Virus record (IMG/VR): IMGVR_UViG_3300013131_000209
Location: 1-27,160 of that record
Strand: one strand, 5' to 3'
DNA: 27,160 nt
From: a virus
Positions 4,101 through 20,212 of the stretch are shown piece after piece. The notes beneath the pieces were generated by a model that made no database searches, was not told the origin of the DNA, and was given only the letters and a program-made list of their open reading frames with translations. A program made the position numbers and the translations under genes. Position 1 is the first letter of the stretch. Each line of letters begins with the position of its first letter.

Positions 4101-6060
4101 AATTCTTTTGGGGTTTGCACTGATCGCAGGTCTTGCAACTGGACTTGTCGGCACGCTTCTCCCTGCTGTCACAATGCTTGCTAATATTCGAATCGCCGAT
4201 CCTGAGTCATTCAAGGCTGTGACAGGAGCGCTCGTCGATATCATGCAGGCAGTCAATGGATTCGTGGGTGCGCTTTCAGGTCTTGCATATATGATGAGAC
4301 CGACCTTCGCGCAGATGTTCGATGGCGATGCATTCCAGGGAAATATCAACGCGATGAAGGGGCTCGTTGATACGATTCTCAAATCAGGAGTCACCGATAT
4401 TATTGACAAGCTGGCAACATTCGCACAAACTGCAAATATAAAGCAGGGCACAGGAGAGGCAATATCAGCAATCGCGGCGGTGCTAGGAGCTGTTGGTACC
4501 CTTCTGAAGGCATTCTCCCCTGACGGCGAGGTGTTTTCCAAGCTGGCAGAAGAGGCCGGTCCGGAGTGGTATGAGATGATTTCTCCCATGGGTCTGGTTA
4601 GCACAATTGGCCGCGCAAATAATATTAGCACGATCATGGATGGTATGAAAGAGATGCAAAATGGCGCGCTGGGACAGCTCCAGGCTGTCCTACCCTCCGT
4701 CGCTACAGGAATCCAAAGCCTACTATCCAGCATTGGCACAATTCCTGCCGGAATCAAGGACGTGGGACCATTTATTTCTGGATTTGCTTCAGTTCTCACT
4801 GCCGTCGCTGCGATCATGAAGGCGATGTCACCCTCCGACAAGGCATTCGAGGCGGTGACCGAGGCGGCTGACACTTACGGGGAAGATGCAACCGCGGTGA
4901 TGAACTCTGCTTTTGCAGGAATGCGGGGAATTTCCACAGGAATTGTCGATCTATTGACGGACATTAAGGATCCCCTTGTCAGCATGATGCAGGGAATGAT
5001 GGAGGCTCTACAGCCTATCATAACTGCTGCGGCCTCAGTCGACCCTCAGGTAATATCAGGGCTCGGGCAGATTCTGTCAGGGGTCATGGGCGCTGTGAGT
5101 AGCATTATGGACACCTTTATCTCGATGATGGATGTTGCGAACGAACGCGCCGGAGCCTATGAAGACGCGTTCGCACAAGAAAGCGCGTTCGACTCCATAC
5201 TCACAAACATAACGGGACTCTTCGCCACCATGGGTCCATCTTTCCTCTCGCTGGTCGAGCCCATGCGAACCATGGTCAACGCAGTCATTGCGATCGCACA
5301 GGGGATAACAAATACGCGGGGACTCAAGGCGAGAATCGAGGCCGTCACCGCGGCTCTGGCGGCGGTGGGTCAGATGTCACAGATCTTCGGACCCAGCGGT
5401 CCCTTCTATGGCGCACCTCCGCCTAATTCGACGGTGCCAGTTAGTCTAATCACTGGCATGGTTACCATGATGGGCGAAGTTGCACGTCAAATCTTGGTGC
5501 GAGGAGGACCACTGCAGCGTGTCGTTGACGCTTTTGATGCGATTGTCGTGAAAAATCCGCGCAGTCTCAAGTCCAAGGCCGAGGCTCTCACAGGCGTCTT
5601 CGCAGGGATCCAGGCACTCAGCACTGCCATGACGACGATGAACGCAACAGGCACGCAGGGCATAGGGGCTCTAGCAGCAGAATTCAATCGACGCTTGGGT
5701 GACACAGAGACAATAACGACAGCACTCGAAAGCATGGTCGATATTCTCAACGTGGTCCCCAGAAACATGGAAAACGTTTCTTCTCGTGTTCAGGCGATGG
5801 TTCAGGCGTACACAGCCCTCCACACGGCACTTAGCACACCTCTCGGTGATGCGAACATCGCCGCGATCGTTCGGCTCAACGATTCTCTAGACGGCCAGCG
5901 TAATCTCACAGTCAGGCACGAATCGCTGCCGCCCATCAACCTTACTGTCACAGTCCACGTCGACTCCGAGGCCGTTGGCGAGGCGATTCTGAATAACGAG
6001 AGAGATATTCGGACCACAGCAGGTAGAAGATTCGCCATTACAGGACCCAATCCTGCGTAA
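1177..6060 (+). CDS. Tail tape measure protein (1627 residues)
   Basis: This is the longest gene in the window. It has the tape-measure hallmarks: a coiled-coil, Gln/Ala-rich N-terminus (residues 1-100), a long helical body with short hydrophobic patches near 118-175, and a strongly hydrophobic stretch at about 769-1003 made of several Gly/Ala-rich membrane-like helices. A second helical half follows, ending in a beta-like tail (residues 1570-1627). It sets tail length during assembly and its hydrophobic part is thought to help DNA cross the host membrane. At about 0.15 nm per residue it predicts a tail near 240 nm, far longer than T4 (gp29 is about 590 residues). It is the functional counterpart of gp29, but the size resembles other long-tailed myoviruses. 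The start has GAGACGG upstream. Confidence 0.9.
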   Translation: MADSKTQELQNQSDLQAQINKILESRNAILAAQQKALSTQVQMAVDMCKALKCEELDLVEARLKTTRDAMSAAATEAGKLKGELGDVAAAGQNAGSQGSSALDKLNDSFDASNLTLAGFGAGILQFGGIFMQTFKNVISMAGGLLASLGKLGFAIITLPFKLLGGLFDLAQSSGGGGPSPIAQALEKIRGELGGLNTAVGKAAVSALPQFRKQLKDMAGTGLRVAKVFGQGREGLAKAMEYNVELIKALGPAAEHFTGVLKKSAVELAMYRKGLGISAESQAQIMKLAEATGKDPAAAMHDFATVAINMGEAFGISAAVIGKDMAEMKADFANFGTLSVRELSQAAVYAHKLGIEVKALQGVIGAFDDFETAAQNAAKLSQAFGMNVDAMKMLNAANPAERLSMLQQAFKETGKSIESMSRQEIKLLAAQSGLTEEQSLAAFSQKGLSQSYDQITKAGAKAEKKQLTQAEAMSKLADSIERVFGGGGGSKFQGFFDAFSKGFQDGILRSKELRGLFRDIRKSLRTVFLAGRSVGKMFAELFPGFQQMVAGLRDVFNPKRFREMMDKVKDIFKQFFLDLRTDPKAGVEKFVERMKEAFKSLFQGQGSGVNTFMEGGKTFLKTIGAIFMAILPMVLDGLIKAVNAIADFIAAPPGIPGAVSALGDQLLDALIRVFDVLKDRLWPPVKRMFMALWEKIGPWVEKTVEVIFYASLFKAFARGAVGALGGAAVGVLKNVLLKTFTTTMVQTGEAAAASTGAGAAAQTATSFMPSIGQFLVAVGAVLLVFAGVVAIYKIAGLTPLDALGLGIIMVSLATSTLMISAAVKMIPPGAAADASGLATVLAIMTASSIVVMGVMAILSMIDTPNLGQIAAFTAVILTLTLATLPIILAATIIGAMKQNVAQAVEGMGIIGVFMVAVGVVGVVVSSLLSLFSNPTGIAALMEGISSLIWATLGMLPAAFALGMVMTSGIGAIGLAPILLGFALIAGLATGLVGTLLPAVTMLANIRIADPESFKAVTGALVDIMQAVNGFVGALSGLAYMMRPTFAQMFDGDAFQGNINAMKGLVDTILKSGVTDIIDKLATFAQTANIKQGTGEAISAIAAVLGAVGTLLKAFSPDGEVFSKLAEEAGPEWYEMISPMGLVSTIGRANNISTIMDGMKEMQNGALGQLQAVLPSVATGIQSLLSSIGTIPAGIKDVGPFISGFASVLTAVAAIMKAMSPSDKAFEAVTEAADTYGEDATAVMNSAFAGMRGISTGIVDLLTDIKDPLVSMMQGMMEALQPIITAAASVDPQVISGLGQILSGVMGAVSSIMDTFISMMDVANERAGAYEDAFAQESAFDSILTNITGLFATMGPSFLSLVEPMRTMVNAVIAIAQGITNTRGLKARIEAVTAALAAVGQMSQIFGPSGPFYGAPPPNSTVPVSLITGMVTMMGEVARQILVRGGPLQRVVDAFDAIVVKNPRSLKSKAEALTGVFAGIQALSTAMTTMNATGTQGIGALAAEFNRRLGDTETITTALESMVDILNVVPRNMENVSSRVQAMVQAYTALHTALSTPLGDANIAAIVRLNDSLDGQRNLTVRHESLPPINLTVTVHVDSEAVGEAILNNERDIRTTAGRRFAITGPNPA

Positions 6061-6069
6061 TATAGACCT

Positions 6070-6372
6070 ATGAAGAAAAACGACACAGGCGCTCAAGATA
6101 AAGATTTCAAGGGGCCCGTTCCCTCTGAAAGCAAACGAGATACTCATGAAGGAATTCCTATAGATGAGTCATCAAAGTTTTTAATGAACGCGTTCGAAAA
6201 ATCACTCGAGAAGCTGGAGCCGGGTGACCGTGAGGCGGTGATGGACCACCACAGCAAGCTCATGAAGAGCATGACAATCTTGAGCGAAAAAATGAATGAG
6301 ATATTTAGCTCTGAGGAAGGGCGCCGTCTCTTCCAGCAAGAGCTGCAGAATCGCGGTGGGTCTAAAAAATGA
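6070..6372 (+). CDS. Unknown 100-residue acidic helical protein, coupled to downstream gene
   Basis: I do not recognise it. The first 35 residues are polar and likely disordered. Residues 36-95 form long charged helices with regular Leu/Met spacing (FEKSLEKL, LMKSMTILSEKMNEIF), suggesting a small coiled-coil. It begins 9 bases after the tape-measure stop with no clear ribosome-binding site, preceded by TAATATAG. It ends in ATGA, overlapping the next start by four bases, so the two are probably translationally coupled. By position it may be a chaperone or connector between tape measure and baseplate. This is inference only. Confidence 0.65.
   Translation: MKKNDTGAQDKDFKGPVPSESKRDTHEGIPIDESSKFLMNAFEKSLEKLEPGDREAVMDHHSKLMKSMTILSEKMNEIFSSEEGRRLFQQELQNRGGSKK
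6301..6308 (+). promoter_or_regulatory. ATATTTAG box inside the 3' end of the preceding gene
   Basis: Third copy of ATATTTAG, continuing as ATATTTAGCTC exactly as at 392-402. It lies 61 bases upstream of the large baseplate-like gene at 6369. It could be an internal promoter for that gene, but it is coding sequence too and may be chance. Confidence 0.2.
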
Positions 6373-9300
6373 CTGACAAAAGAGGCAATCAGACCAACTA
6401 TGACCTGGGGCTAAATGACTCAGGCGAGCTATCGTCTGTGGGTGATCTTTTTAACCCAGGCCATCCAGATTCTGGAAATGAGCCCCGAGACCAGAGTGGT
6501 GCCGTTAGATTCGATCAGGGACAAGACATTCCTCGTGCCGCGAAGGTGACTTTAGGAAACTATCTCAGCAATGCGACCAAGGGAAATGTAGGTAATTCTC
6601 GCCCTAATACATTTCAAGTATCTCCTGACAGCAGCGATGTGGGCCTAGGAATTGATACCAACCTTTCATCCAAAAGGGCTGGACTGCTGACACGAGTCGA
6701 CATCAAGAACAATGGCGTGACCATGGGAACTTATCTCGATCATGTCAAGGGCCACGTCGACGCAGCCAAGGCAGCCAGAAAGTTCGAGTCTACAAAAAAC
6801 TCTGATTACGGTCGAGACTCGAGCAATCCATTTGTAAGTCCCGACGTCGGTATAAAGAACTATTCAGATCCTGCTACACGTTCTCGTGGACAAGACGGAA
6901 ATAGCATTCTTTTGAACGTCGACCCGCAGGGGACTGTGAGCTTTGCTGAGCCTGGAAATCCTCAAATTGGACCGCTGAGAGACGATGCGCCTGTTGTTCA
7001 AAAGAAGATCTCCGAGGTTCTCCGGCAAAATCGCTTCAATCCTATCGAAAAAGCTTTCGTTCAAAATCGCACATGGACTGGACCTGGCACAACACTACAG
7101 CGCCAGTTGGGCACATATGTCAAGGACTCACAGTCGATAGAGATAAAGCAGGGACTTCTGGAGCAGGTGGGACTTAAGCTCATGATTAGGGCTACAGGAC
7201 ACAGCGTTCCTGGACAAGATTTGCTAAATGACACAAATAGCCTTCAAGAAACGAACAACTACGCGCCTCTTATCCCTAGTGCGCCACAGCTAACAGGCCT
7301 ACCACTTATACCTGTTGTCAATCTCATGGCAGGTAATGTTGATGTGTCTCAGGGCTTGGCCGGTGTGGGAGTAACGCCAGAATCAGCTCGGGCTGAGTAT
7401 ATCGATAAGGTAGACTTTGAGCCTGCTCCTGGATCAACTAGCTCTACGTGGAATGAGACCTTCGACGGACGAAGCTATGGTGTGCTTAATTCTCACATTG
7501 AGCCCTTCAGCGGCGGATTACCAGTTGGCACATTTACAACAACCTTAGCTGGAATCGTGTTGATAGTAGGAGCGTCATTTTTAATCACGGCGCTTCCCCT
7601 AATTCTGAATAGAGACATGGCTACTGTAGATCACTTTGACCCTACAGGGTCCAGCATGCTGAATATTATTCCTGCCAATTTGACGATGGGTCGACACACT
7701 GAGATTAGAACCAACGGAGGCACAGGAGAGTATGCACCATATAATCGGTTGCAAGAATTCATATTTGAGCTCCTGGGAATACCAAGAACAAATCACCGTT
7801 GGGAGCAATGTCTCCTTCAGGGGATTGGAGCATTCTTTGGAGTAGGGATTAGAGAAGATTTTTCAATCGACGGAGAGCTCCTGGGAGAAAACATCTATTA
7901 CTTGTTGACGGCACCCGGATATTACGCAGTCGTGATACGAAATGCGATAAGGGACGTCGAACAGATCGTTAAGGCCATAGAAAGCTTTGCAGAAGCAGGA
8001 TCTGCAGGCAATATTGTTGCAATAGTGTCAGGGATCTTTAGTCTCATCGACTCGATCACGTCATCAGCCCTTTATCGCTTTTTTATGACGATGACTGCGC
8101 TGGGAAATCAGGTCTTGAACGCATCAATTCATACCTTTGATATATCGTTGAGGGTAAATGAGGAAGACCGCGAGTACTCTGGCCCAGGCAGAGGCCACTC
8201 CGGCGAAGTCCCGGTCGGCGCCCTCAGCTGGCGTCACTCTGCGGCACTTAGCTTTCATCTCATACCAGGTTCTTTAGGCAGTCAGGTTGCTGGATTTATC
8301 GATATGGGGTATAATGGTACGCCTAGAGGACCTGGATCAAGAGTCAACCAGTTTGATCTTACGCTGCTGGGGCCCCGCCGTGTGTCGCCAGGCGGGCTTC
8401 GCAGCATCCCCGCCGAGCAGGTCCCCGCGCGCGACGCAAGGCTAACAGCTGGTGACGTTAAGACGATCGAGAGTCTGCTAGATGCTGAGCACGTGCCGTT
8501 TTATTTTCACGACCTTCGTACGAATGAGATAATCTCATTTCACGCATTTTTGTCTGATCTATCAGACGGGTTCTCTGTGAACTACACCAACACGACGGGG
8601 TATGGTCGCGCTGATGAGGTCATGATATACAATAACACGAAGAGGACGATCGGGTTTACTTTTCATGTGGTCGCAACTTCTGAAAAAGATTTTGATATTA
8701 TGTACTGGAACATAAACAGGCTGATCACAATGCTGTATCCACAATATTCTGCCGGTCGTCAAATGACGACAAGCAATATTGACTTCATTCAGCCCTTTTC
8801 TCAAATACAGACAGCGTCGCCTATGATTAGATTGAGAATAGGAGATATTGTCAAAGGAAATTATTCCAGGTTTGCGCTAGCGAGACTTTTTGGGTTTGGA
8901 ACAACTAGAATGGATATCAATCGAGAGATCGCACGTCGACAAGCTGCTGTGGATAATGGGAATAATGGGAATGCCAGAATTAGTGCTGAAAACGAGGCGA
9001 TCGAAGCGCGCAATGCAGCGCGCCTCAGGTCCGCGGCTGAGACAAGAGTAAACACGTGGACTGAGGCACGCCAGGCGAGGCCTATAAATGAAAGATATGT
9101 CGTAGGCGATGAGGTGAATATTCGCCCTGTAACGATTTTGGCGGGCATTGACAACGTCGAGTTTAGAGATTCAAGAGGTGGAGCCATGGCAGTTCTGGGC
9201 AGCGTCGCCGGCGTCCCTACAAGGACGCGTAAGCCAGACGCACCTGCTGCTTACTTGAGCATTCCAAGAACTTTAAGCTCGGTCAGGACTCCAGCAGATC

Positions 9301-9968
9301 TGAGAGTAAAGATTATCTCGCTTTCTGGCCAGCCTAATTTTCCATCGCCCCCTCCGTCTGATAACCCTCCGTTCGGATATCATTATGCTCCTGCCACATC
9401 TCCCAGCGAGAGACATGTCATTGCTTTTGTCGAGATACAGAACATGACGTTCAATCTTCCTGAGGGTCCGGCAGGTATGGAGGTACTAGGAAATTATAGG
9501 TACATGTACATCAACCTAGATTTCATTACAAGATTCGACAATACATACGTAGTAGCACAACTTGAGAATGAGCCAGTTCCTGAAGATCAGCTCAGGCTGT
9601 TGAGCTCGAGCCTAGAGCCTACGAGAGAACTCAACAATACACGTATTGCAAATAGCACCGTCTTCCGCGAATTTTTTGAACCCGCAACAAATCCGATCGT
9701 TCGCTCCTTCGAGAGCACAAAGGGTAAAGGCCTTGCAGGATTTATCACCGATCTAAAGATGGACTGGGGGGAGTCGACTTGGGAGATCGACAGAGGACGT
9801 CAGGCACCCAAGAGTATGAAGCTTTCTATTTCATTCTCACCAATACACGATATACCCATGGGCCTCGACTCAGACGGCGCGATGCGCAGCGTCGCGTATA
9901 ACGTCGGCGAATTGTCACATTATATTGGATCTGATCCATATGCAACCGATCCAACTCCGGAGGGTTGA
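6369..9968 (+). CDS. Large baseplate/tube-initiator-like virion protein (1199 residues)
   Basis: Residues 1-200 are polar, Asn/Asp/Gly-rich and repetitive in feel (FNPGH, FVSPD). Around 387-412 there is one long hydrophobic segment (AGIVLIVGASFLITALPLIL) that would span a membrane. From about 709 the pattern VPFYFHDLRTNEIISFHAF with the following FTFHVVATSEKDFD is one I recognise from structural proteins of T4-like marine phages. The last 60 residues (FSPIHDIPMGLDSDG) also match such proteins. It is probably part of the baseplate or the tube-start layer, the place held by gp48/gp54 in T4 after the tape measure, though it is about three times their size. The start overlaps the previous stop (ATGA). 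The exact homolog is not settled. Confidence 0.7.
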   Translation: MTDKRGNQTNYDLGLNDSGELSSVGDLFNPGHPDSGNEPRDQSGAVRFDQGQDIPRAAKVTLGNYLSNATKGNVGNSRPNTFQVSPDSSDVGLGIDTNLSSKRAGLLTRVDIKNNGVTMGTYLDHVKGHVDAAKAARKFESTKNSDYGRDSSNPFVSPDVGIKNYSDPATRSRGQDGNSILLNVDPQGTVSFAEPGNPQIGPLRDDAPVVQKKISEVLRQNRFNPIEKAFVQNRTWTGPGTTLQRQLGTYVKDSQSIEIKQGLLEQVGLKLMIRATGHSVPGQDLLNDTNSLQETNNYAPLIPSAPQLTGLPLIPVVNLMAGNVDVSQGLAGVGVTPESARAEYIDKVDFEPAPGSTSSTWNETFDGRSYGVLNSHIEPFSGGLPVGTFTTTLAGIVLIVGASFLITALPLILNRDMATVDHFDPTGSSMLNIIPANLTMGRHTEIRTNGGTGEYAPYNRLQEFIFELLGIPRTNHRWEQCLLQGIGAFFGVGIREDFSIDGELLGENIYYLLTAPGYYAVVIRNAIRDVEQIVKAIESFAEAGSAGNIVAIVSGIFSLIDSITSSALYRFFMTMTALGNQVLNASIHTFDISLRVNEEDREYSGPGRGHSGEVPVGALSWRHSAALSFHLIPGSLGSQVAGFIDMGYNGTPRGPGSRVNQFDLTLLGPRRVSPGGLRSIPAEQVPARDARLTAGDVKTIESLLDAEHVPFYFHDLRTNEIISFHAFLSDLSDGFSVNYTNTTGYGRADEVMIYNNTKRTIGFTFHVVATSEKDFDIMYWNINRLITMLYPQYSAGRQMTTSNIDFIQPFSQIQTASPMIRLRIGDIVKGNYSRFALARLFGFGTTRMDINREIARRQAAVDNGNNGNARISAENEAIEARNAARLRSAAETRVNTWTEARQARPINERYVVGDEVNIRPVTILAGIDNVEFRDSRGGAMAVLGSVAGVPTRTRKPDAPAAYLSIPRTLSSVRTPADLRVKIISLSGQPNFPSPPPSDNPPFGYHYAPATSPSERHVIAFVEIQNMTFNLPEGPAGMEVLGNYRYMYINLDFITRFDNTYVVAQLENEPVPEDQLRLLSSSLEPTRELNNTRIANSTVFREFFEPATNPIVRSFESTKGKGLAGFITDLKMDWGESTWEIDRGRQAPKSMKLSISFSPIHDIPMGLDSDGAMRSVAYNVGELSHYIGSDPYATDPTPEG

Positions 9969-10026: not shown

Positions 10027-10317
10027 ATGTCACAAAGATATAGTAATACTCCTAAAATCGCTGCCGGAAGTCAATATGGCACTGCCACGGCTCACAATGG
10101 CATTCGTCGAGCTGTACAACAGGGGCAAATTAGTACGAGAGAGTACGTGCTCAATGAGGGCGAGCGCCTCGACACGATCGCGGGCCGTGTGTATGGAAAC
10201 GCTCGCCTGTGGTGGATTATTGCCGCAGCTTCCGGAATCGGGTGGCCCCTGCAGGTGCCTCCTGGGACGCAGCTTTTGATACCAACTGACTTGAAGCAGA
10301 CGGCGCAGTATGCCTGA
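10027..10317 (+). CDS. LysM-like baseplate protein (gp53 / gpX type)
   Basis: This is a 96-residue protein. Residues 38-88 contain a LysM-type fold signature: GERLDTIAGRVYGNARLWW, then an IAAASGI turn and PPGTQLLIP at the end. Short LysM-like proteins placed between tape measure and hub are common in contractile tails (P2 gpX; the C-terminal domain of T4 gp53), where they join wedge or hub parts rather than cut cell wall. The ATG at 10027 is chosen because the frame before it lacks another good start. No convincing Shine-Dalgarno sequence is seen. Its last 8 bases overlap the next gene (ATGCCTGA), so translation is probably coupled. Confidence 0.8.
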   Translation: MSQRYSNTPKIAAGSQYGTATAHNGIRRAVQQGQISTREYVLNEGERLDTIAGRVYGNARLWWIIAAASGIGWPLQVPPGTQLLIPTDLKQTAQYA

Positions 10318-13300
10318 GGGAATTAGCACTAGACTCGAAGAGATTGTGACCGCCCTAGGGCGCTATTATGGTGCTACATCTCGAAGCGACTTCGTGTCGA
10401 TGCTGCTTCTCCGAGAGAGAGATTTGCCCACTGATATGTTTACAGTGCCGGATTCAACGCCAGCACGGGTGGCCGCCCAGGCACTGCTCGACGTGACTGA
10501 GGGCGGCTTCACAACTCCTGAGCTGATCAGGCGCCTCAACGAATATGTGGGATCGGCGACAGACACCAATGACATACCTGGCCTAATAAAAATTTGCTAT
10601 GAACCAGAGTTGCTGGCAGATCTTGACAATCGCGCTCGGGCTGTCCTACGCACCGGCACCGCACCCTCTGTCGATACACCCGGCGACACGAATGTGCAAC
10701 AGGGCTTCAAGAGGCGTGGCGACTCGGACAACCAAGCCTTTTCGATCAAGCACACGGGCGGATTCTCAAGCGCCAGCGAAGCTGAGACGATCGTTTCTAT
10801 CAATGGGACAGGAACGTCCCCAGGTACCAGCGCGCACGTCGATTGCTCGATTATTCAGGTTTTTGCGAATAGATTAGCCCCTGCTTCAAGAGACATGGGC
10901 GCGCTGACACTATTTATGAATGCGATTCCTACGCTGGAAATAAGTCGCGCCGTTCCATTTATCGACGTGGTTCTAGTTCAGGAGGGCGATCATTTTACGA
11001 ATAATCGACTCACCAGTCTGTCTCTAGGACAGTTTCTACTTGGGAACCAGACGATTCCAGATGGAACGATGCAGCGCACGATTCTGGGTGCGAACGATGC
11101 ACAGGTCGTTTCTGAGAATGCTAGAGATCCAGAGTTCGAGAGGACTGAGCGCGCCGCCGATGGAACAGAGACCACAACTCGATCGCCTATCGCGACTGCA
11201 GGAATGGAGCTCTTTACATCGCCCCAGACCCTAGTGAATGCTGATGAGGACTACCAAGAGCTCGACGCATTTTCTGCGAGTCGCGAGGCCCAACTCGTGA
11301 GACAATCACCTGTCATTGACAAGTTTCGCCCCTTGATGTCGCTCAAGTCTCTATCTTTCAACGTTGTCGGTACCGGCGGTATGATGTCATATAAGACAGG
11401 AAAAATGAGCGTCGTCCTCCATGATCGATCGCGACTCGCTGAAATTTCTGCGCTTGTTCGCCCGGCCAGGTTTGGCACGACACATTTGCTCATAGAGTAT
11501 GGGTGGTCACACCCAGATTCACCGGCACAGTCAGGGTTTGCAGCGCTCAATAGAGACAATCTCTTTGGTTCTCTAATCGGTGCCCTCAGGGTAAAAGAGA
11601 AGTATCAGATAGTGAACTCGAGTTTCGATTTTGACGATTCAGGTCAGGTCAATATCGAGCTGCAGCTCTCAATGCTGGCGAATAGATCACTGCAGCGCGC
11701 GCAGATTGGACTGGGAATCGACAATGTTCCAGCATTTCAGCAGGTGCAGCACCTCACGAATCTAATACAGGAGCTGCGCAGTAGAATTCCTTCCGCAACG
11801 GCACAGGCGGTCTTTGGAGAGTCTGATGTGCTGGGATCTCTAACAAATCCTAGCGGCGCAGTTACACCATTGAGCGCTGATGTCGTGCGACAAATTAGAA
11901 ACCTGACAGCTCTGCGCACCACAGGCGCTAGTCCTGATTTGCGCGCGCTCGGACAGGCACTATCTGATCTCATGGGATCTTCTGGAGGTCGCGCAGGGCG
12001 CCTGAGGTCTGAGATGCGAACGGCGATAACACAGCGCATCAACAACCTCTCAAGAACGTCAGATCCGTTTCTCGTTCCTGGAGTTCCAAATGGCAGGCAC
12101 GAGAATACTGCCAACGTAACAGGCGCGGACTTTGTCTCGCTGGGAAAAATATTCACGTCCTTCGCGCTCCAACCAGCTGCAGCCTCCGGACACTACAAGG
12201 ACGTCCAGATCATCTTCTATAACTTCAACGAAAAGGCATCCTACATGGCGAATAGAAATATCGCCACGTTCCCGATTAAAAAGAGCGACTTCGAGGCTGT
12301 TCTCAGGCGCGAGCTCGACCAACTCATCAACATGCCTGTAGAGTCTTTCATCAACTTTGTGGGTACGTACTTCATATCAGACCCTGCTGCGAAAGCATAT
12401 GGGTTCAATAGCGCCTATGGAGAACTGCCGACCGACGAAAGTGAAGACTCACTGCGGCAACTAAACAATCGATATAAAGACGACGAGGCTGCGCTCTTCA
12501 ATCTGCAGCAGAGTGTTTTGCAGCATGCCTATGGCACGGAAGACGCTGATCTCGAATTCAAGCACCCGACCGTCTCTGTCGTGCTCGAGTCTGTTCCTGT
12601 TCGAGCAGGCGGCACGCCTGACCAGACGATACTTCGAATTCACGTCTTCGACTCTCAGGCGACGTCACATGCGACGCTCCAGGGCTTTCTGGAATCGGCG
12701 TCATCCCGGACTTTAGGTCTCTTGAACACGACAGCGCTCGCAGTCCAGCAAACGCTTGGTAGAACCACACAAGAGAATACCGTTGCCCGCCGCGACTATG
12801 ACAATGCAATAAGCACCGCCATCGCGGCAGGTCTAATCGAGCAGTATCCTGCTGCCCCATCAGGAGGCGCAGCAGGCACCACGCCTGACAGCAGAACGCG
12901 CCAGAGATATGTCCTCAGAGGGGGATTTGGTCGGCTCAAAAACTTTATCATGAGAACCGTCCCAAGCGTGCGCTATGGGGAGGGGTCATCCGGCATTCTC
13001 TCTGCCAAAGTTACTTCGATGAATGACTCAGCTCTCTCCACTGTGAATATGCTCAGACAGGGCAGGTCACCTGAGAATCCCATAGGGACTCGCGAGCAGG
13101 GAGTGCCACTCCAGGTTTCGCCTGTCGAGTGCACTCTGGAGACGATTGGCTGCCCCCTATGGAGTTTTGGACAGCAGATCTTTCTCGATATGGGCACAGG
13201 GACAACGATCGACGCGATCTATGGCGTGACAGGCGTCGATCACACGATCGAGCAGGGCAATTTCAAGTCGACTGTCAAGCTGACGCCCATGAACTCATAT

Positions 13301-13861
13301 GCGAGATACACGTCTCTCGTCACCAATCTCGAAAACGCTCTCGTCGCAATCAACGGAAATATTACTGGGGACCCTATCAATATTCCTGAGCCTGGTCGCA
13401 TCGTGCCTGCCCGGCGGCGCACAGGCCGCGGAGCCGCATCAGGCGGTGGCGGGTCAGGTGGCGGGTCAGGTGGCACCGCGGTGAGCGGCTCAGAGGGCGC
13501 CCCGCGGGCCCGCACAGTCGGCGGCGACCGTGCCGAGGCGCTTGTCAGAGGCTCGCTATATGCACTTGGCGGATCCGCACCGAATTATTGGCCGGGAGCC
13601 GCTGCAGCTCGAGAAGAGGGCGAGCGAGAATCAGCTGCCATATCAGCTGCCATACTGCGAGGAAATGAGATAAATGAAGAGCTGCGGACGATCGAGAGAG
13701 ATATTGCCAGATATCGCGAGAATATCCGTAGGGCCGAGGCCGAGGGCCATGGTCCATACTACGCGTCGAACGTGCGGAGGGTTCGCGGGGAGAACGAGCC
13801 GCAAATTCGCGACGCCGAGGAGCGCCGCCGCCGCCTCGAAAACGAAAGAGCCCGGCTCTAG
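10310..13861 (+). CDS. Large baseplate hub-like protein (1183 residues)
   Basis: This appears modular. Residues 1-90 form a separate small helical domain (see findings). Residues about 340-470 include LHDRSRLAEI and LLIEYGWSHPD, a pattern I associate with hub-like structural proteins of large myoviruses. Residues about 890-1020 hold a hub-type region with GVDHTIEQGNFKSTVKL, the 'measured field' style seen in gpD/gp27-like hubs. A Gly-Ser linker near 1044-1056 is followed by a charged, Arg/Glu-rich coiled coil to the end, which contains a short duplicated SAAI unit. It lies directly after the LysM-like gene, the place of the hub in P2-like and T4-like tails. No lysozyme or peptidase motif was recognised. 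Hub function is inferred from position and pattern. Confidence 0.65.
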   Translation: MPEGISTRLEEIVTALGRYYGATSRSDFVSMLLLRERDLPTDMFTVPDSTPARVAAQALLDVTEGGFTTPELIRRLNEYVGSATDTNDIPGLIKICYEPELLADLDNRARAVLRTGTAPSVDTPGDTNVQQGFKRRGDSDNQAFSIKHTGGFSSASEAETIVSINGTGTSPGTSAHVDCSIIQVFANRLAPASRDMGALTLFMNAIPTLEISRAVPFIDVVLVQEGDHFTNNRLTSLSLGQFLLGNQTIPDGTMQRTILGANDAQVVSENARDPEFERTERAADGTETTTRSPIATAGMELFTSPQTLVNADEDYQELDAFSASREAQLVRQSPVIDKFRPLMSLKSLSFNVVGTGGMMSYKTGKMSVVLHDRSRLAEISALVRPARFGTTHLLIEYGWSHPDSPAQSGFAALNRDNLFGSLIGALRVKEKYQIVNSSFDFDDSGQVNIELQLSMLANRSLQRAQIGLGIDNVPAFQQVQHLTNLIQELRSRIPSATAQAVFGESDVLGSLTNPSGAVTPLSADVVRQIRNLTALRTTGASPDLRALGQALSDLMGSSGGRAGRLRSEMRTAITQRINNLSRTSDPFLVPGVPNGRHENTANVTGADFVSLGKIFTSFALQPAAASGHYKDVQIIFYNFNEKASYMANRNIATFPIKKSDFEAVLRRELDQLINMPVESFINFVGTYFISDPAAKAYGFNSAYGELPTDESEDSLRQLNNRYKDDEAALFNLQQSVLQHAYGTEDADLEFKHPTVSVVLESVPVRAGGTPDQTILRIHVFDSQATSHATLQGFLESASSRTLGLLNTTALAVQQTLGRTTQENTVARRDYDNAISTAIAAGLIEQYPAAPSGGAAGTTPDSRTRQRYVLRGGFGRLKNFIMRTVPSVRYGEGSSGILSAKVTSMNDSALSTVNMLRQGRSPENPIGTREQGVPLQVSPVECTLETIGCPLWSFGQQIFLDMGTGTTIDAIYGVTGVDHTIEQGNFKSTVKLTPMNSYARYTSLVTNLENALVAINGNITGDPINIPEPGRIVPARRRTGRGAASGGGGSGGGSGGTAVSGSEGAPRARTVGGDRAEALVRGSLYALGGSAPNYWPGAAAAREEGERESAAISAAILRGNEINEELRTIERDIARYRENIRRAEAEGHGPYYASNVRRVRGENEPQIRDAEERRRRLENERARL
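13445..13474 (+). repeat. Tandem 12-bp repeat coding a Gly-Ser linker
   Basis: GGTGGCGGGTCA occurs twice in tandem plus a half copy. It encodes a flexible GGGSGGGSGG linker between the hub-like body and the coiled-coil tail of the 1183-residue protein. Such simple repeats change length easily by slippage. Confidence 0.8.
13630..13653 (+). repeat. Perfect 12-bp tandem duplication in the coiled-coil tail
   Basis: ATCAGCTGCCAT is repeated twice head to tail with no mismatch, encoding SAAISAAI. It looks like a recent in-frame duplication in the C-terminal helix of the hub-like gene. Confidence 0.8.
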
Positions 13862-13917: not shown

Positions 13918-15129
13918 ATGAGAGTCTGCCTCGACGCCACCTCTTTAGGCACGCAAAGTTCTCTGGTCATAAATTTCGATGGGAGCTGCGAGTGGATTGA
14001 CAATCCTGCGGGCTGCGCTGTATCCTTGGGGCCAAGGTCGACCGTGTCGATCGGGTCTCTAGCTCTAATGCACGGTATGTCACCTGATTCTGTACAGCTC
14101 TCTGATCCTGCGCACCAGCGCTCTTTCGAAGTCCTAGGAATTCAGGACCTCGAGATTCCGTGGGCGATGGTCCTCGGGCGCCGAAAGTTTACTGCCCGAC
14201 TCAAGCAGGTCGTTCGGGCAATCCAGGATGTCACTGGAGACCCAGAGCTCGTGCGGTATGTGGAAACATATGGACAGGGAAATGAATTCTTGAAGACCCT
14301 CCAGAGGCCCCGGATCGACCTTGAGCGGATGAGACAGCACCGGTCAGATCTCACAGGGGGCGTCTCGCCCCTCACGGCTCTGGCATCGTTCTCTCCCGAC
14401 GAGACCGGCCTCGCTCCTGAGATCGAGTATGACCGGGTCTCGACGGCGACCGGCCGGCTCAAGGTCGCAAGAGGGCCCTCTGTGCTCACGCTCCAGAAGG
14501 AGTGTCGCGACATTATCGCCTCTCGCCGAGGGGGCTCGGTCTGGGAGGTCGACTTCGTCTCTCTCGAGCCTCGGGTCGCCCTCAACATTATGGGAGTCGA
14601 GCCGCCTCGCGATATCTATGAGGGTGTCCGCGAGCGCATGAACATGTCAGGCGTGACCCGCTCCGCCATCAAGCAGGCGGTCATCAGCGCCCTGTATGGT
14701 TCATCATCCTCGGCCCTCGCCGAGGCGCTCGGGGGGCGCCGGGAGGCGCAGGGGCTCATCCGCGAGGTCAAGGAGTACTTCAAGGTTGCCGACTTGGTCG
14801 CGCGGCTCCGGTCTGAAATGGATCATGCAGGCGGGCGGCTGCACAACTATTATGGCCGGCCGCTCCTCGACGCAAAGGGGGATGACCCCGACTCGAAGCT
14901 GATCAGCCACTATCTCCAGTCGACTGCCGTCGACGTCGCACTGCTCGGATTTAAAGACCTCTCCACCAGGCTCTCAGCGTCAGGAGTCCAGCCTATTTAT
15001 GTCATTCACGATGCTGTCCTCTTCGACGTTCCTGCCGGCCGAGAGGTCCAGCTACAAGAAGAGTGCTCCCGCGGCGTGGACTTAGAGATCGGTCGCTTCG
15101 AGCTAGGACTTAAGAGGGTGTCGCAATGA
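13918..15129 (+). CDS. Family A DNA polymerase, polymerase domain only (403 residues)
   Basis: All three catalytic motifs are present. Motif A is DFVSLEPR at 212-219. Motif B (O-helix) is R248-x3-K252-x7-Y260-G261. Motif C is IHDA at 363-366 with the metal-binding Asp365. Upstream TATGRL around residue 177 matches the primer-strand motif before LQ, and YYGRPL near 311 matches the GR motif. The protein is about the size of the polymerase part of E. coli Pol I alone. The first 150 residues show no 3'-5' exonuclease DxE motif. The Glu after the motif C Asp is Ala, and the residue matching Phe762 of Pol I is Ile256. It presumably copies the phage genome with the nearby SSB and helicase; a separate exonuclease may be elsewhere. 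Start ATG follows an AT-rich 50-base gap. Confidence 0.88.
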   Translation: MRVCLDATSLGTQSSLVINFDGSCEWIDNPAGCAVSLGPRSTVSIGSLALMHGMSPDSVQLSDPAHQRSFEVLGIQDLEIPWAMVLGRRKFTARLKQVVRAIQDVTGDPELVRYVETYGQGNEFLKTLQRPRIDLERMRQHRSDLTGGVSPLTALASFSPDETGLAPEIEYDRVSTATGRLKVARGPSVLTLQKECRDIIASRRGGSVWEVDFVSLEPRVALNIMGVEPPRDIYEGVRERMNMSGVTRSAIKQAVISALYGSSSSALAEALGGRREAQGLIREVKEYFKVADLVARLRSEMDHAGGRLHNYYGRPLLDAKGDDPDSKLISHYLQSTAVDVALLGFKDLSTRLSASGVQPIYVIHDAVLFDVPAGREVQLQEECSRGVDLEIGRFELGLKRVSQ

Positions 15130-17631: not shown

Positions 17632-18375
17632 ATGGCAAAGAAGACCGCGAAAGAAGCACAGGAAGTAAAAGAAGCTCCGGCTCCTAAGGTGATTAAGGAG
17701 GTGCCGCAGCATGATGATTTCACCGACGATCTCATCAAGTCTCTCAACAAGTCGCATGGGACCCGGGTCGCCTACAACCTGGCGCTCGATGACTCCCCCA
17801 CCCACGTGAAGCGCTGGATCAGCACCGGATCCCGCCAGCTCGACTACATTATCTCCAATCGCCGCGGCGGTGGACTCCCAGAAGGCCGCATCGTGGAGAT
17901 CTTCGGCCCTCCCTCGATCGGTAAGTCGCACATCGCCATCCAGATCGCCCGCTCCACCCAGAAGATGGGCGGCATCGTGGTCTACATCGACACGGAGAAC
18001 GCCACCTCGGTCGAGAACCTGGGCCTGCTCGGGGTCGATGTCAAGAAGCGGTTCGTCTATGTCGACACCCACTGCACGGAGGAGGTCCTCTCCATCGCTG
18101 AGGAGACCATCCTGAAGGCGAAGGCAATGAACAAAGACGTGCCGGTCACCATCATCTGGGACTCGGTGGCTGCGAGCTCCCCCAAGGCAGAGCTTACTGG
18201 AGACTATGACAAGGACTCGATCGGTCTACAGGCCCGCGCGATCTCCAAAGGCATGCGCAAGATCACCGGTGTCATCGCCAACGAGAACGTGCTGCTAGTG
18301 TGCCTGAACCAGACTCGTATGAAGATCGGCTGCGTCGGTCCTGACACCGAAGTTTCTGTAAGAAAAGTGTCATGA
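17632..18375 (+). CDS. uvsX: UvsX/RecA recombinase N-part fused to a 14-residue N-intein
   Basis: Residues 1-233 are the N-terminal half of a phage recombinase: Walker A GPPSIGKS at 92-99, catalytic Glu122 in YIDTENATS, Walker B Asp177 in TIIWDS, and CLNQTRMKIG at 224-233 leading into DNA-binding loop 2. The recombinase then breaks off. Cys234 starts CVGPDTEVSVRKVS, an intein block A, followed by a TGA stop. The missing half is encoded at 19664-20212 behind the rest of an intein. Protein trans-splicing would join Gly233 to Thr145 of that product and give a 415-residue UvsX (T4 UvsX is 391). The gene works in strand exchange and recombination-driven replication together with SSB. The start has GAGAGGG upstream. 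Confidence 0.93.
   Translation: MAKKTAKEAQEVKEAPAPKVIKEVPQHDDFTDDLIKSLNKSHGTRVAYNLALDDSPTHVKRWISTGSRQLDYIISNRRGGGLPEGRIVEIFGPPSIGKSHIAIQIARSTQKMGGIVVYIDTENATSVENLGLLGVDVKKRFVYVDTHCTEEVLSIAEETILKAKAMNKDVPVTIIWDSVAASSPKAELTGDYDKDSIGLQARAISKGMRKITGVIANENVLLVCLNQTRMKIGCVGPDTEVSVRKVS
18331..18372 (+). other. N-intein fragment (14 residues)
   Basis: CVGPDTEVSVRKVS begins with the Cys that would start the N-to-S acyl shift and carries the G-x-DT element of intein block A. Usual split inteins have an N-part near 100 residues. A 14-residue N-part puts this in the small class of 'atypically split' inteins (AceL-TerL and the Vida Lake UvsX intein are the ones I know of). It needs the long C-part at 19232 to be active. 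Confidence 0.85.
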
Positions 18376-19258
18376 AGTTTTCAATCAACCTCTGACAAAG
18401 TATATTTATTGTCGAGGTTGATTGAAATGCCACCTGGGATATATCCGAGAAAAGGTCACTCCGAAGCTACAAAACTGAAGATCGCCGCCGGAAATACTGG
18501 CAAGGTCTTTTCGAGCGAAAGAAAAGAAGCAATATCGAAAGCGAACAAAAAGAAATTAGCTCCAGACGTTGTCGATCGTGCTGAAAAACTGATTTCAGAA
18601 AAGTGCTGTTCTTTCGACGCCGCCATCAAGCATCTAGGTCTTAAACCCACGAAGGCGTTGAGACAGGCTTTGATCGATCAGGGAGTCGATGTGTGCGACG
18701 ATCTCAAGTTCTTCAATTGGAGCATTGACTACTCAACGGGCAAGAAACTTCTTTCGTATTTGAAACTGAACGTTCATTGGTGTGAGATACAAGAAAGAAC
18801 GGGCCTCACACAAAAGCAAATACACGGAGCAAGGATCAAGCTTGAGAAAGCTCACAATTTTGTCTACTCACCCGAAAGGAAAAAGCCAGGCGGGTATGCC
18901 AAGTCGAAGATAGAGCTTCAGGTGCAAGCGATGCTAGATGAGCTAGGTGTAGAATACGAGTCTGAGTTTCCGCATGACGCCTTCTTCTATGACTTTCGAG
19001 TAAAGCGTACGTCGCTTCTCATAGAAGTGAATGGTGACTATTGGCATGCCAATCCCGTCGTGTATCCTGACAAGGAAGCTCTAAATGAAACACAGAGAAA
19101 GATGGTCAGAAGAGATCATTACAAGAGAAGAGTCGCCAAAGATCACGGATATTATGTTTTGTATCTTTGGGAATCTGATTTGAAAAGCCAGCCAGAAGCA
19201 GTTAGAATTACTCTAGAGAGGTACATCAAAAATGCATTCGAAAAAGCAGAAGCTCTCA
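18373..19258 (+). mobile_element. Homing endonuclease cassette that splits the uvsX intein
   Basis: Removing these 886 bases joins TCA (18370-18372) to AGC (19259) and gives one uninterrupted frame ...RKVS-SFFSEAGFD... through the intein into UvsX. The same TCA stands at 19256-19258, so insertion is flanked by a 3-base identity. The cassette holds a hairpin leader and a homing endonuclease gene, and no intron core fits (54 bases before the gene, none after). Hand counts in sample stretches give about 40-45% GC in the endonuclease gene, against about 60% in the uvsX part at 17941-18000, supporting separate origin. Confidence 0.75.
18379..18427 (+). promoter_or_regulatory. Hairpin hiding the endonuclease RBS, with promoter-like loop
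   Basis: 18379-18392 pairs perfectly with 18414-18427 (14 bp). After one bulged T (18393), 18394-18398 pairs with 18409-18413 (5 bp). The loop is AGTATATTTA. The 3' arm contains the ribosome-binding GAGG (18414-18417) and reaches the A of the ATG at 18427. Long transcripts through uvsX would therefore hide the start. A transcript begun from the TATATTTA box in the loop would start near 18413, lack the 5' arm and be translated. T4 I-TevI is controlled by just this hairpin/late-promoter design. Confidence 0.75.
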
Positions 19259-19272
19259 AGCTTCTTCAGTGA
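18427..19272 (+). CDS. Free-standing homing endonuclease, Vsr-like (EDxHD type) with NUMOD3-like repeats
   Basis: This 281-residue protein uses ATG 18427, with GAGG 9 bases upstream; the in-frame TTG at 18409 has no ribosome-binding site and lies in the hairpin. Residues 10-45 carry two NUMOD3-like DNA-binding repeats (HSEATKLKIAAGNTGK, then FSSERKEAISKANKK). Residues about 100-150 look like helix-turn-helix modules. The C-terminal nuclease domain has Glu163, Asp189 in FYDFRV, EVNGDYWHANP (His207), a RRDHYKRR helix (Asp230) and YVLYLWESDL, the order seen in very-short-patch-repair-like homing endonucleases. It would cut uvsX intein alleles lacking the cassette and copy itself in. Its last 41 bases overlap the C-intein gene in another frame. 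Confidence 0.88.
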   Translation: MPPGIYPRKGHSEATKLKIAAGNTGKVFSSERKEAISKANKKKLAPDVVDRAEKLISEKCCSFDAAIKHLGLKPTKALRQALIDQGVDVCDDLKFFNWSIDYSTGKKLLSYLKLNVHWCEIQERTGLTQKQIHGARIKLEKAHNFVYSPERKKPGGYAKSKIELQVQAMLDELGVEYESEFPHDAFFYDFRVKRTSLLIEVNGDYWHANPVVYPDKEALNETQRKMVRRDHYKRRVAKDHGYYVLYLWESDLKSQPEAVRITLERYIKNAFEKAEALKLLQ

Positions 19273-19663
19273 AGCCGGATTCGATTACAAGTCGATGGAG
19301 GTAGGCAGGTTCTACCCCTTGAATGAAAATTGGGAAATTCTAACGCGCGATTCTAGCGGCCGAGACGCTTGGTGTAGAGTGACTCACCTGGTCAGAAAAG
19401 AAGCAACCGTGCCAATCGTTGTCCAGTACATGGACACGCAACTCTTCGTAAGCCCAGAGCACAAGTTTTTTGCGAGAGTAAGCGGTGTAGATGGCTGGAT
19501 CGAGGCAATAGACTTGATCGAAGAGCGCAACGTTCTTCTCCTACACCAGACACACGGTTGGATTCCAGCCTATATGTCTGCTGGCTCTGAAGAGATCGAA
19601 ATTCTCGATATGACTGTCGAGGGTGCCGAGAGCTACTATAGCAATGGTGTTCTTTCCCACAAC
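19232..19663 (+). other. C-intein fragment (about 135-144 residues)
   Basis: This holds every intein splicing block except block A: block B with SPEH, the W-x-x-A-x-DL turn, and blocks F and G ending His-Asn. Together with the 14-residue N-part it makes a mini-intein of about 150 residues. Base composition in samples is near 48-50% GC, lower than the UvsX parts on either side, as expected for an intein that entered from outside. Confidence 0.88.
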
Positions 19664-20212
19664 ACCATGTACGGCGACCCAACGACTACGCCCGGGGGAA
19701 GTGCCATACCTTTTCATGCTTCGGTCCGCATCAAGCTGGGCGCTGGACAGCAGATCCTCAACAAGGACAAGGAGGTCATCGGCATCCACGTCTCGGCGAA
19801 GACGGTGAAGAACAAGGTCTCGGCGCCCTTCAGGTCCTGCGAGTTCGAGATTCACTTCGGTGTGGGCATCAAGGAGCATGAACAGCTCTTCGATCTCCTG
19901 CGCACGCATGGCGCCGAGTCAGTCAACGGTCTCCGCCTCGAGGTCGCTGGCACTGGGTCCTGGAAGACCTTCACGGTGATGCGCGAAGACACTGGAGAGG
20001 TCATTGTGGACAAGAAGTTCTACAAGGCCGAGTTCGATAAGCTCCTCGCCGACCCAGAGCTCTCAGAGTTCCTGGACGATCTGATCGCCGCAGCAATGAC
20101 GAAGAAGCGCAGCACCGAGGGACCGAATGTCGACGCAGAATCCTACGAAGAAGTCAGGGCTCTCTCGATGGAAATGGATGATCTAGGAATGGGCATCTCT
20201 CCGGAGGAGTGA
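19232..20212 (+). CDS. uvsX: C-intein fused to the UvsX/RecA C-part
   Basis: Residues 1-144 are the large intein part and 145-326 the C-terminal recombinase half (TMYGDPTTTPGG, then IPFHASVRIKLG). Start ATG 19232 has AGAGAGG 10 bases upstream and lies inside the endonuclease gene. Residues 1-9 come from the cassette and do not belong to the ancestral intein. Intein block B is SPEHKFFA (His near residue 73), followed by GWIEAIDL. Block F/G is EILDMTVEG through YSNGVLSHN, with His143, Asn144 and Thr145 as the +1 nucleophile. No endonuclease domain is inside the intein. The recombinase tail ends in an acidic stretch (MEMDDLGMGISPEE). Without splicing with the 17632 product neither half can be a working recombinase. 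Confidence 0.93.
   Translation: MHSKKQKLSSFFSEAGFDYKSMEVGRFYPLNENWEILTRDSSGRDAWCRVTHLVRKEATVPIVVQYMDTQLFVSPEHKFFARVSGVDGWIEAIDLIEERNVLLLHQTHGWIPAYMSAGSEEIEILDMTVEGAESYYSNGVLSHNTMYGDPTTTPGGSAIPFHASVRIKLGAGQQILNKDKEVIGIHVSAKTVKNKVSAPFRSCEFEIHFGVGIKEHEQLFDLLRTHGAESVNGLRLEVAGTGSWKTFTVMREDTGEVIVDKKFYKAEFDKLLADPELSEFLDDLIAAAMTKKRSTEGPNVDAESYEEVRALSMEMDDLGMGISPEE

What the first reader, a model, noticed from the sequence alone, without database searches (positions are those of the whole stretch)
17632..20212. Fractured uvsX: atypically split intein with a 14-residue N-part
Seen: one recombinase in two genes; the first ends CVGPDTEVSVRKVS-stop, the second begins with intein blocks B, F and G ending SHN before Thr-MYGDP. 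Known: 'fractured genes' in phage metagenomes, described by Dassa and co-workers, carry split inteins flanking a free-standing endonuclease; a few inteins split very early exist. Inference: trans-splicing restores a 415-residue UvsX. A 14-residue N-part would be among the shortest natural ones.
Basis: partly seen in the sequence, partly recalled or inferred. Interest (0 to 1): 0.92.

Follow-up and report, generated by a model that had tools for sequence, protein, structure and literature searches.

The report
Split phage recombinase with early-split intein
In this phage the recombinase gene uvsX is broken in two by a mobile DNA-cutting gene, and each half carries part of a self-splicing protein (an intein whose first part is only 14 residues long) that should join the halves back together; the arrangement is of a known kind, but this intein part is one residue shorter than any characterised natural one and the DNA-cutting gene appears to be held silent by an RNA hairpin.

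Summary
Confirmed. uvsX is split into 17632-18375 (233-residue N-extein + 14-residue IntN CVGPDTEVSVRKVS) and 19232-20212 (144-residue IntC + 182-residue C-extein); splicing would give 415 residues. The stop is not an assembly error: a second contig has the same cassette, and 15 distinct IntN of 13-18 residues end there with TGA, TAG or TAA. A continuous relative (L108) shows nothing is missing at the break; its model has the intein fold. Intein-free relatives have Val at +1 (72/72); all 21 distinct inteins at this site have Thr. The cassette is younger than the gene around it (synonymous divergence 0-0.15 against 0.58), and equally similar uvsX genes are empty or carry a distant intein, so it moves. 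Between the halves lies an intact EDxHD-family endonuclease gene. New here: a 19-bp hairpin over its Shine-Dalgarno sequence, conserved in four relatives, with the promoter-like motif ATATTTA in the loop, as in T4's I-TevI and Aeh1's mobE. It is a new member of a known kind (fractured genes, atypically split inteins). Fourteen is one below the shortest characterised natural IntN (15), but usual in this family, and 13 also occurs. Splicing itself is untested.

The parts
17632..18330 (+). UvsX N-extein (233 aa, Walker A GPPSIGKS), ending ...TRMKIG
   Evidence: tblastn to about 80 uvsX loci at 77-93% identity
18331..18372 (+). IntN, 14 residues CVGPDTEVSVRKVS (intein block A), Cys1 nucleophile
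   Evidence: lines up with the first 14 residues of the continuous intein L108
18373..18375 (+). TGA stop ending the N-half; relatives use TGA/TAG/TAA here
18379..18427 (+). RNA hairpin: 14-bp perfect stem (18379-18392 with 18414-18427) plus 5-bp inner stem (18394-18398 with 18409-18413); hides the Shine-Dalgarno GAGG
   Evidence: z -7.1, 0 of 500 shuffles; compensatory pairs in relatives
18402..18408 (+). ATATTTA in the hairpin loop: candidate phage (late) promoter -10 element
   Evidence: motif enriched on the sense strand of intergenic spacers in the window and in related phage G001
18414..18417 (+). GAGG Shine-Dalgarno for the endonuclease, 9 nt before ATG 18427, inside the hairpin's 3' arm
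18427..19272 (+). free-standing homing endonuclease, 281 aa: NUMOD3-like N-end, EDxHD/Vsr-like nuclease at the C-end
   Evidence: (3r3p E 1.9e-10); dN/dS 0.09 against L113
19215..19221 (+). AGAGAGG, Shine-Dalgarno-like, for the second half (10 nt before ATG 19232), inside the endonuclease gene
   Evidence: direct reading
19232..19663 (+). IntC, 144 residues MHSKKQK...VLSHN (blocks B, F, G)
19664..20212 (+). UvsX C-extein (182 aa) starting at Thr+1: TMYGDPTTTPGG

Best explanation
The uvsX gene of a T4-like phage was invaded by a mobile cassette made of a split mini-intein and an EDxHD homing endonuclease gene. The gene is now read as two separate proteins. UvsX-N ends in a 14-residue IntN; UvsX-C is preceded by a 144-residue IntC. 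The two intein parts associate into one HINT domain, split in the turn after the second strand (position S1). Class 1 splicing then follows: Cys1 attack, transfer to Thr+1, cyclisation of the terminal Asn, and ligation of ...TRMKIG to TMYGDP..., giving a 415-residue UvsX that differs from intein-free alleles by Val to Thr at the joint. The endonuclease cuts intein-free uvsX in co-infecting phages and so spreads the cassette. Its own translation is blocked on read-through transcripts by a hairpin over its Shine-Dalgarno sequence, and is probably released by a promoter in the hairpin loop that makes transcripts lacking the 5' arm. Shown here by computation: anatomy, homology, fold of a continuous relative, conservation, lateral movement, hairpin. 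Inferred: splicing, DNA cutting, promoter activity and timing.
For: Anatomy. Halves match complementary parts of one UvsX profile. A continuous relative, L108, has the two parts in one chain with nothing missing at the break (CVSPETMVTVRKSD-AKKQKISKFF... against CVGPDTEVSVRKVS / MHSKKQKLSSFF...). The L108 model has pLDDT 95.8 and matches inteins, including VidaL 6vgv (Z 17.5, 132 residues, 2.1 A) and split NrdJ-1 and PolB1; the break falls between strands 7-11 and 15-19. SPxH of block B, Asp of block F and SHN of block G are kept. +1 residue: Val in 72/72 empty loci, Thr in 21/21 distinct inteins. 15 distinct split versions with 13-18 residue IntN and three kinds of stop codon. The split persists where the endonuclease is gone or decayed (L087, L083, L128, L135, L103), so the halves appear to be kept for splicing. 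Movement: against L113, uvsX-N dS 0.58, endonuclease 0.147, first 84 IntC codons 0; L087 has uvsX-N 95% identical but IntC 58%, and L005 has uvsX-N 95% and is empty. Endonuclease: 3r3p and Vsr by profile and fold, invariant catalytic-type residues, purifying selection. Hairpin: z -7.1; also in L113, L101, L099, L098; pairs beat every slid register, 4 pairs with changes on both sides. Loop motif ATATTTA: in spacers 4 sense against 0.08 expected in the window, 7 sense and 1 antisense against 0.20 in G001.
Against: No splicing, cleavage or expression data exist here. The fused window intein could not be folded (its parts are separate in the DNA), so the model is of a 56%-identical relative. The hairpin rests on five sequences, and shuffles of columns do not reach significance for covariation (59/500). 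L099's hairpin loop lacks ATATTTA, and in the AT-rich phage G003 the motif is not clearly enriched.
Confidence: 0.92

Rival explanations
1. The two UvsX pieces work as an unspliced two-subunit recombinase, as the fragmented NrdA of phage Aeh1 is thought to do, and the intein pieces are dead leftovers.
For: Free-standing endonuclease genes embedded in a fragmented gene without splicing are known (Aeh1 mobE; background PMC2988022; function of the Aeh1 fragments from my own knowledge).
Against: All intein blocks and catalytic residues are kept at 25-69% overall identity among relatives; every intein allele has Thr+1 where every empty allele has Val; a dead 144-residue leader in front of the C-part would be expected to decay.
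Confidence: 0.05
2. The stop at 18373 is a sequencing or assembly error and the gene is one continuous intein with a nested endonuclease.
For: Continuous inteins at the same site exist (L108, L084, L085, L089, L094, L152). The endonuclease happens to be in the N-half's frame in the window.
Against: The same TGA in an independent contig; different stop codons and different frames in relatives; hairpin, Shine-Dalgarno and start codon lie between; the second half overlaps the endonuclease in another frame.
Confidence: 0.01
3. Stop-codon read-through or frameshift, not trans-splicing, joins N-half, endonuclease and C-half.
For: The endonuclease is in frame with the N-half in the window, L113 and L098.
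Against: TGA, TAA and TAG are all used, and the endonuclease is in another frame in L099 and L101; it has its own Shine-Dalgarno sequence and start; some relatives have no endonuclease at all.
Confidence: 0.01
4. Concerning the hairpin only: it is not a translational switch but a transcription terminator or a DNA recognition feature of the endonuclease.
For: Strong stem between two genes; T4 endonucleases also bind operator sites near their promoters (PMC2988022).
Against: No U-run after the stem; the 3' arm covers the Shine-Dalgarno sequence and reaches the start codon in the window and its relatives; termination would also cut off the essential second half of uvsX; the arms change with compensation at two stem pairs in L099.
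Confidence: 0.2

Closest known systems
[quoted passage not shown] 2009, cited in PMC7090010 and PMC13014065; paper itself not held)
   Same: Phage-type replication gene in two pieces, each with an intein part, a free-standing Vsr/EDxHD-like endonuclease between them; metagenomic phage.
   Different: As I recall, the 2009 cases are split at the canonical endonuclease site (long IntN); here the split is after 14 residues and in uvsX.
VidaL split intein (16-aa IntN; PDB 6vgv; PMC13014065)
   Same: Cys-dependent, split at S1 after strand 2; same fold. From memory, a VidaL UvsX-2 intein was also reported in the same work, which would be a direct relative; not checkable here.
   Different: Only 20% identical to L108 over aligned residues; IntN two residues longer.
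PolB16 OarG split intein (15-aa IntN, PMC10189870)
   Same: Atypical split at S1; very short IntN usable as a synthetic peptide.
   Different: Ser1/Ser+1 intein in a PolB gene from a sheep gut metagenome; here Cys1/Thr+1 in uvsX, and one residue shorter.
I-Bth0305I / EDxHD homing endonucleases and Vsr (PDB 3r3p, 1cw0)
   Same: Nuclease domain by profile (E 1.9e-10) and fold (TM 0.86 on the target) with E-D-x-H-D-type residues.
   Different: Free-standing between intein halves, not in a group I intron; helical, NUMOD3-like N-part.
Hairpin-controlled T4 endonucleases I-TevI, SegB and Aeh1 MobE (PMC2988022)
   Same: Hairpin hides the Shine-Dalgarno sequence; promoter-like element placed so that late transcripts would lack the 5' arm.
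   Different: Promoter motif is ATATTTA-like, not TATAAATA, and is not mapped; the host element is a split intein.

Membership tests
Atypically (S1) split class 1 intein | Two separately encoded parts, very short IntN (published natural range 15-37 aa), long IntC | tested here: met
   IntN 14, IntC 144; one residue below the published lower bound of 15 (PMC13014065)
Atypically (S1) split class 1 intein | Catalytic residues: Cys1, block B His, block F Asp, penultimate His, terminal Asn, nucleophile at +1 | tested here: met
   Cys at 18331-18333; SPEH...ILDM; SHN; T+1; kept across 16 sequences (terminal Asn lacking only in L103, whose contig ends there). Block B has Ser for the usual Thr
Atypically (S1) split class 1 intein | HINT fold, split in the turn after the second strand | tested here: met
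   AlphaFold2 model of continuous homologue L108, pLDDT 95.8; Z 14-18 to inteins; residues 12-14 are the turn. Not modelled on the window's own pair
Atypically (S1) split class 1 intein | Trans-splicing activity | not testable with these tools
   needs expression
Fractured-gene arrangement | Endonuclease gene between the two intein-bearing halves of one gene | tested here: met
   ORF 18427-19272
Fractured-gene arrangement | Mobile: cassette found at one site in some alleles and absent from close relatives, with its own history | tested here: met
   dS 0-0.15 in cassette against 0.58 in uvsX; empty alleles at 95% uvsX identity. Cleavage itself not tested
EDxHD homing endonucleases | Vsr/PD-(D/E)xK-like nuclease domain with E-D-x-H-D residues | tested here: met
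   3r3p E 1.9e-10, Vsr 2.6e-7; fold TM 0.86 on 3r3p; invariant E163, D189, E200, H207, D230
EDxHD homing endonucleases | Site-specific cleavage of the intein-free allele | not testable with these tools
   target site unknown
T4-type hairpin control of endonuclease translation | Stable hairpin over the Shine-Dalgarno sequence | tested here: met
   equivalent hairpins in four relatives
T4-type hairpin control of endonuclease translation | Late promoter whose transcript lacks the 5' arm | tested here: inconclusive
   ATATTTA in the loop, enriched before genes in the window and G001; absent from L099's loop; no transcript data

The most novel reading that the evidence does not exclude
The hairpin with its loop promoter is a timing switch for the whole fractured gene: early transcripts make both UvsX halves (hence spliced UvsX) but no endonuclease, while late transcripts starting in the loop make the endonuclease and only the IntC-UvsX-C half, so that new UvsX formation stops or becomes limited by the N-half when the endonuclease is on. 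A natural split intein would then sit inside a T4-style early/late gene switch.
Probability: 0.35. Interest if true: 0.65.

Novelty: new member of a known kind. Interest (0 to 1): 0.5.

Why it matters
A 13- to 14-residue natural IntN is easy to make by peptide synthesis and adds a Cys1/Thr+1 family, with continuous, split and endonuclease-less members of one site, to a toolbox where the shortest characterised natural IntN has 15 residues. The family also lets one see how inteins break and perhaps re-fuse: both states occur inside one well-supported clade, and at least five changes are needed on the tree. The endonuclease hairpin joins two known themes, fractured genes and T4-type endonuclease timing, that I did not find joined in the papers I could search.

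Tried and rejected
Single-sequence phmmer of IntC against the PDB gave only chance hits; the 16-row profile was needed. The search for related loci with IntC alone found only the L001 contig; a DNA pattern for K[IV]GCVxP[DE]T found the family (about a dozen of the 40 hits are unrelated proteins with chance matches, e.g. L086, L088, L091, L092). No relative in GTDB genome contigs. No phage record in GenBank covers the second half well (0 of 70 records at 80% coverage). Assembly error, read-through and nested endonuclease were considered and rejected (see rivals). The canonical T4 late motif TATAAATA is not found before genes on the sense strand here. Dassa 2009 is not held, so comparison with it rests on citations and memory. 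A script with too narrow a pattern was replaced. Rfam at curated thresholds found nothing in the window or six loci.

Full report
What is there. The window is a virus record of 27,160 bases from a T4-like phage: gp32-like SSB, UvsX, 5'-3' exonuclease, DnaB-like helicase, both ribonucleotide reductase subunits and ClpP all on the + strand. uvsX is in two ORFs. The first, 17632-18375, ends ...TRMKIG-CVGPDTEVSVRKVS-stop. The second, 19232-20212, starts MHSKKQK and ends its intein part in SHN before TMYGDP. The two halves match complementary parts of the same UvsX profile (phrog_97 1-228 and 357-467). Splicing would give 233 + 182 = 415 residues.

The break is real. An independent contig (L113/L003) has the same 14 residues and stop. 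Loci fetched with a degenerate pattern for the junction and with the intein profile gave 15 distinct split inteins at exactly this uvsX site. Their IntN are 13 residues (2), 14 (7), 15 (3), 16 (2) and 18 (1), closed by TGA, TAG or TAA. Six distinct continuous inteins occupy the same site. The nearest, L108, carries the two parts in one chain, so that the window's parts add up to a complete mini-intein.

It looks able to splice. Cys1, block-B SPxH, block-F Asp, and terminal SHN are kept. In 72 of 72 intein-free loci the residue after KIG is Val; in 21 of 21 distinct inteins it is Thr, the nucleophile that splicing needs. The AlphaFold2 model of L108 (pLDDT 95.8) has the intein fold, with Z 14-18 to solved inteins, among them VidaL 6vgv (Z 17.5 over 132 residues, 2.1 A) and the split NrdJ-1 and PolB1 inteins. 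The break falls in the turn between strands 7-11 and 15-19, the S1 position that PMC13014065 describes for VidaL and PolB16. Trans-splicing itself is inferred.

How short is 14? Papers that I could read give 15 residues as the shortest characterised natural IntN (PolB16 OarG, PMC10189870) and 15-37 as the natural range (PMC13014065). An artificially split intein with 11 exists (PMC13014065). So 14 is below the published natural minimum by one, but it is the usual length in this family, and L119 and L120 have 13.

The gene between. ORF 18427-19272 (281 aa) is a free-standing endonuclease: I-Bth0305I 3r3p at E 1.9e-10 and Vsr at 2.6e-7 by profile, the same two by fold, a weak NUMOD3 match (E 0.21; 3.4e-4 in a relative), and invariant E163, D189, E200, H207 and D230. 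Against L113 its dN/dS is 0.09. Elsewhere it has decayed or gone while both halves of the intein stay open: gaps of 29 nt in L087, 190 in L128, 201 in L083 and 378 in L135; in L103 IntC starts a few nucleotides after the stop.

It moves. Between the window and L113 synonymous divergence is 0.58 in uvsX-N, 0.147 in the endonuclease and 0 in the first 84 IntC codons. L087 is as close in uvsX (95% aa) but its IntC is only 58% identical, and L005, also 95%, has no intein. Split and continuous states are mixed on the intein tree: at least 5 changes, 2 of them forced by well-supported branches, and both states lie within the window's own clade.

The hairpin. From 18379 to 18427 a 14-bp perfect stem plus a 5-bp inner stem covers the endonuclease's Shine-Dalgarno GAGG (18414-18417) and touches its ATG. 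Its energy beats all 500 shuffles (z -7.1). L113, L101, L099 and L098 have the equivalent hairpin (z -4.2, -6.4, -5.0, -2.7). The given pairing holds in 84% of cells against 28-51% in slid registers, with changes on both sides at 4 pairs; the column-shuffle control is not significant with five sequences (59/500). The loop holds ATATTTA. This heptamer occurs 5 times in the window against 0.94 expected, all on the + strand, 4 of them in spacers before genes (0.08 expected). It is also enriched in the sense direction in spacers of related phages G001 (7 sense, 1 antisense, 0.20 expected) and G002 (3 and 0, 0.18), but not in AT-rich G003. T4 I-TevI, I-TevII, I-TevIII, SegB and Aeh1 MobE are controlled by just such hairpins, with a late promoter placed so that late transcripts lack the 5' arm (PMC2988022). 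I infer the same here: UvsX halves early, endonuclease late. The second half has its own Shine-Dalgarno-like AGAGAGG at 19215-19221, so it need not depend on translation of the endonuclease.

Verdict. It is a new, well-made member of a known kind. What is added is that the short split is the family's rule, that the cassette is demonstrably mobile, that nothing is missing at the break, and that the endonuclease sits behind a T4-style hairpin.

Noticed in passing
L010 1179-4818 (same in L011, L012, L095, L107, L115, L122): uvsX interrupted three times within about 12 codons: split intein a (18-aa IntN, own endonuclease) at KIG|T, a second split intein at GDPT|T (IntN CVDLDTEIEVEFDESSMFNKKYFNKNFK, IntC starting MKIKTT), then an intervening element with another EDxHD-type endonuclease at TTPGG|. 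The middle extein between the two inteins would be only 7 residues (TMYGDPT).
   Followed up: partly
L004 1424-1870, L061 2871-3243; also L021 1600-1880, L026: Group I intron core in uvsX after TTPGG (Rfam RF00028, E 1.1e-7 in L004 and 3.5e-6 in L061, below the curated threshold of 50 bits), followed by an EDxHD-type endonuclease ORF. The window's uvsX is empty at this site.
   Followed up: partly
L085 (continuous intein, then TMYGDPS|CVSPDTKIKVRRRNV*): A continuous intein at site a is followed 7 residues later by another intein whose IntN again ends after about 14 residues.
   Followed up: no
L149-L151, L154, L156-L160, L162, L167, L170, L173: Related inteins at a helicase-like site (..SHN|SWxLxxxG..), several with an endonuclease-like ORF directly upstream, probably the gp41-type fractured genes.
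   Followed up: no
window 392, 1133, 26582 and 18402: ATATTTA(G) in spacers before genes: candidate promoter motif of this phage group in place of T4's TATAAATA; ATACTTAG is similarly enriched in G001.
   Followed up: partly
window 13918-15129: 403-aa ORF matching only the C-terminal part of family A / phage DNA polymerase profiles (Pfam DNA_pol_A 111-353, phrog_17 969-1199); no polymerase N-part recognised upstream.
   Followed up: no
window 6369-9968 and 10310-13861: Two ORFs of 1199 and 1183 aa without any Pfam or PHROG match, next to a tape-measure-like ORF (1177-6060).
   Followed up: no
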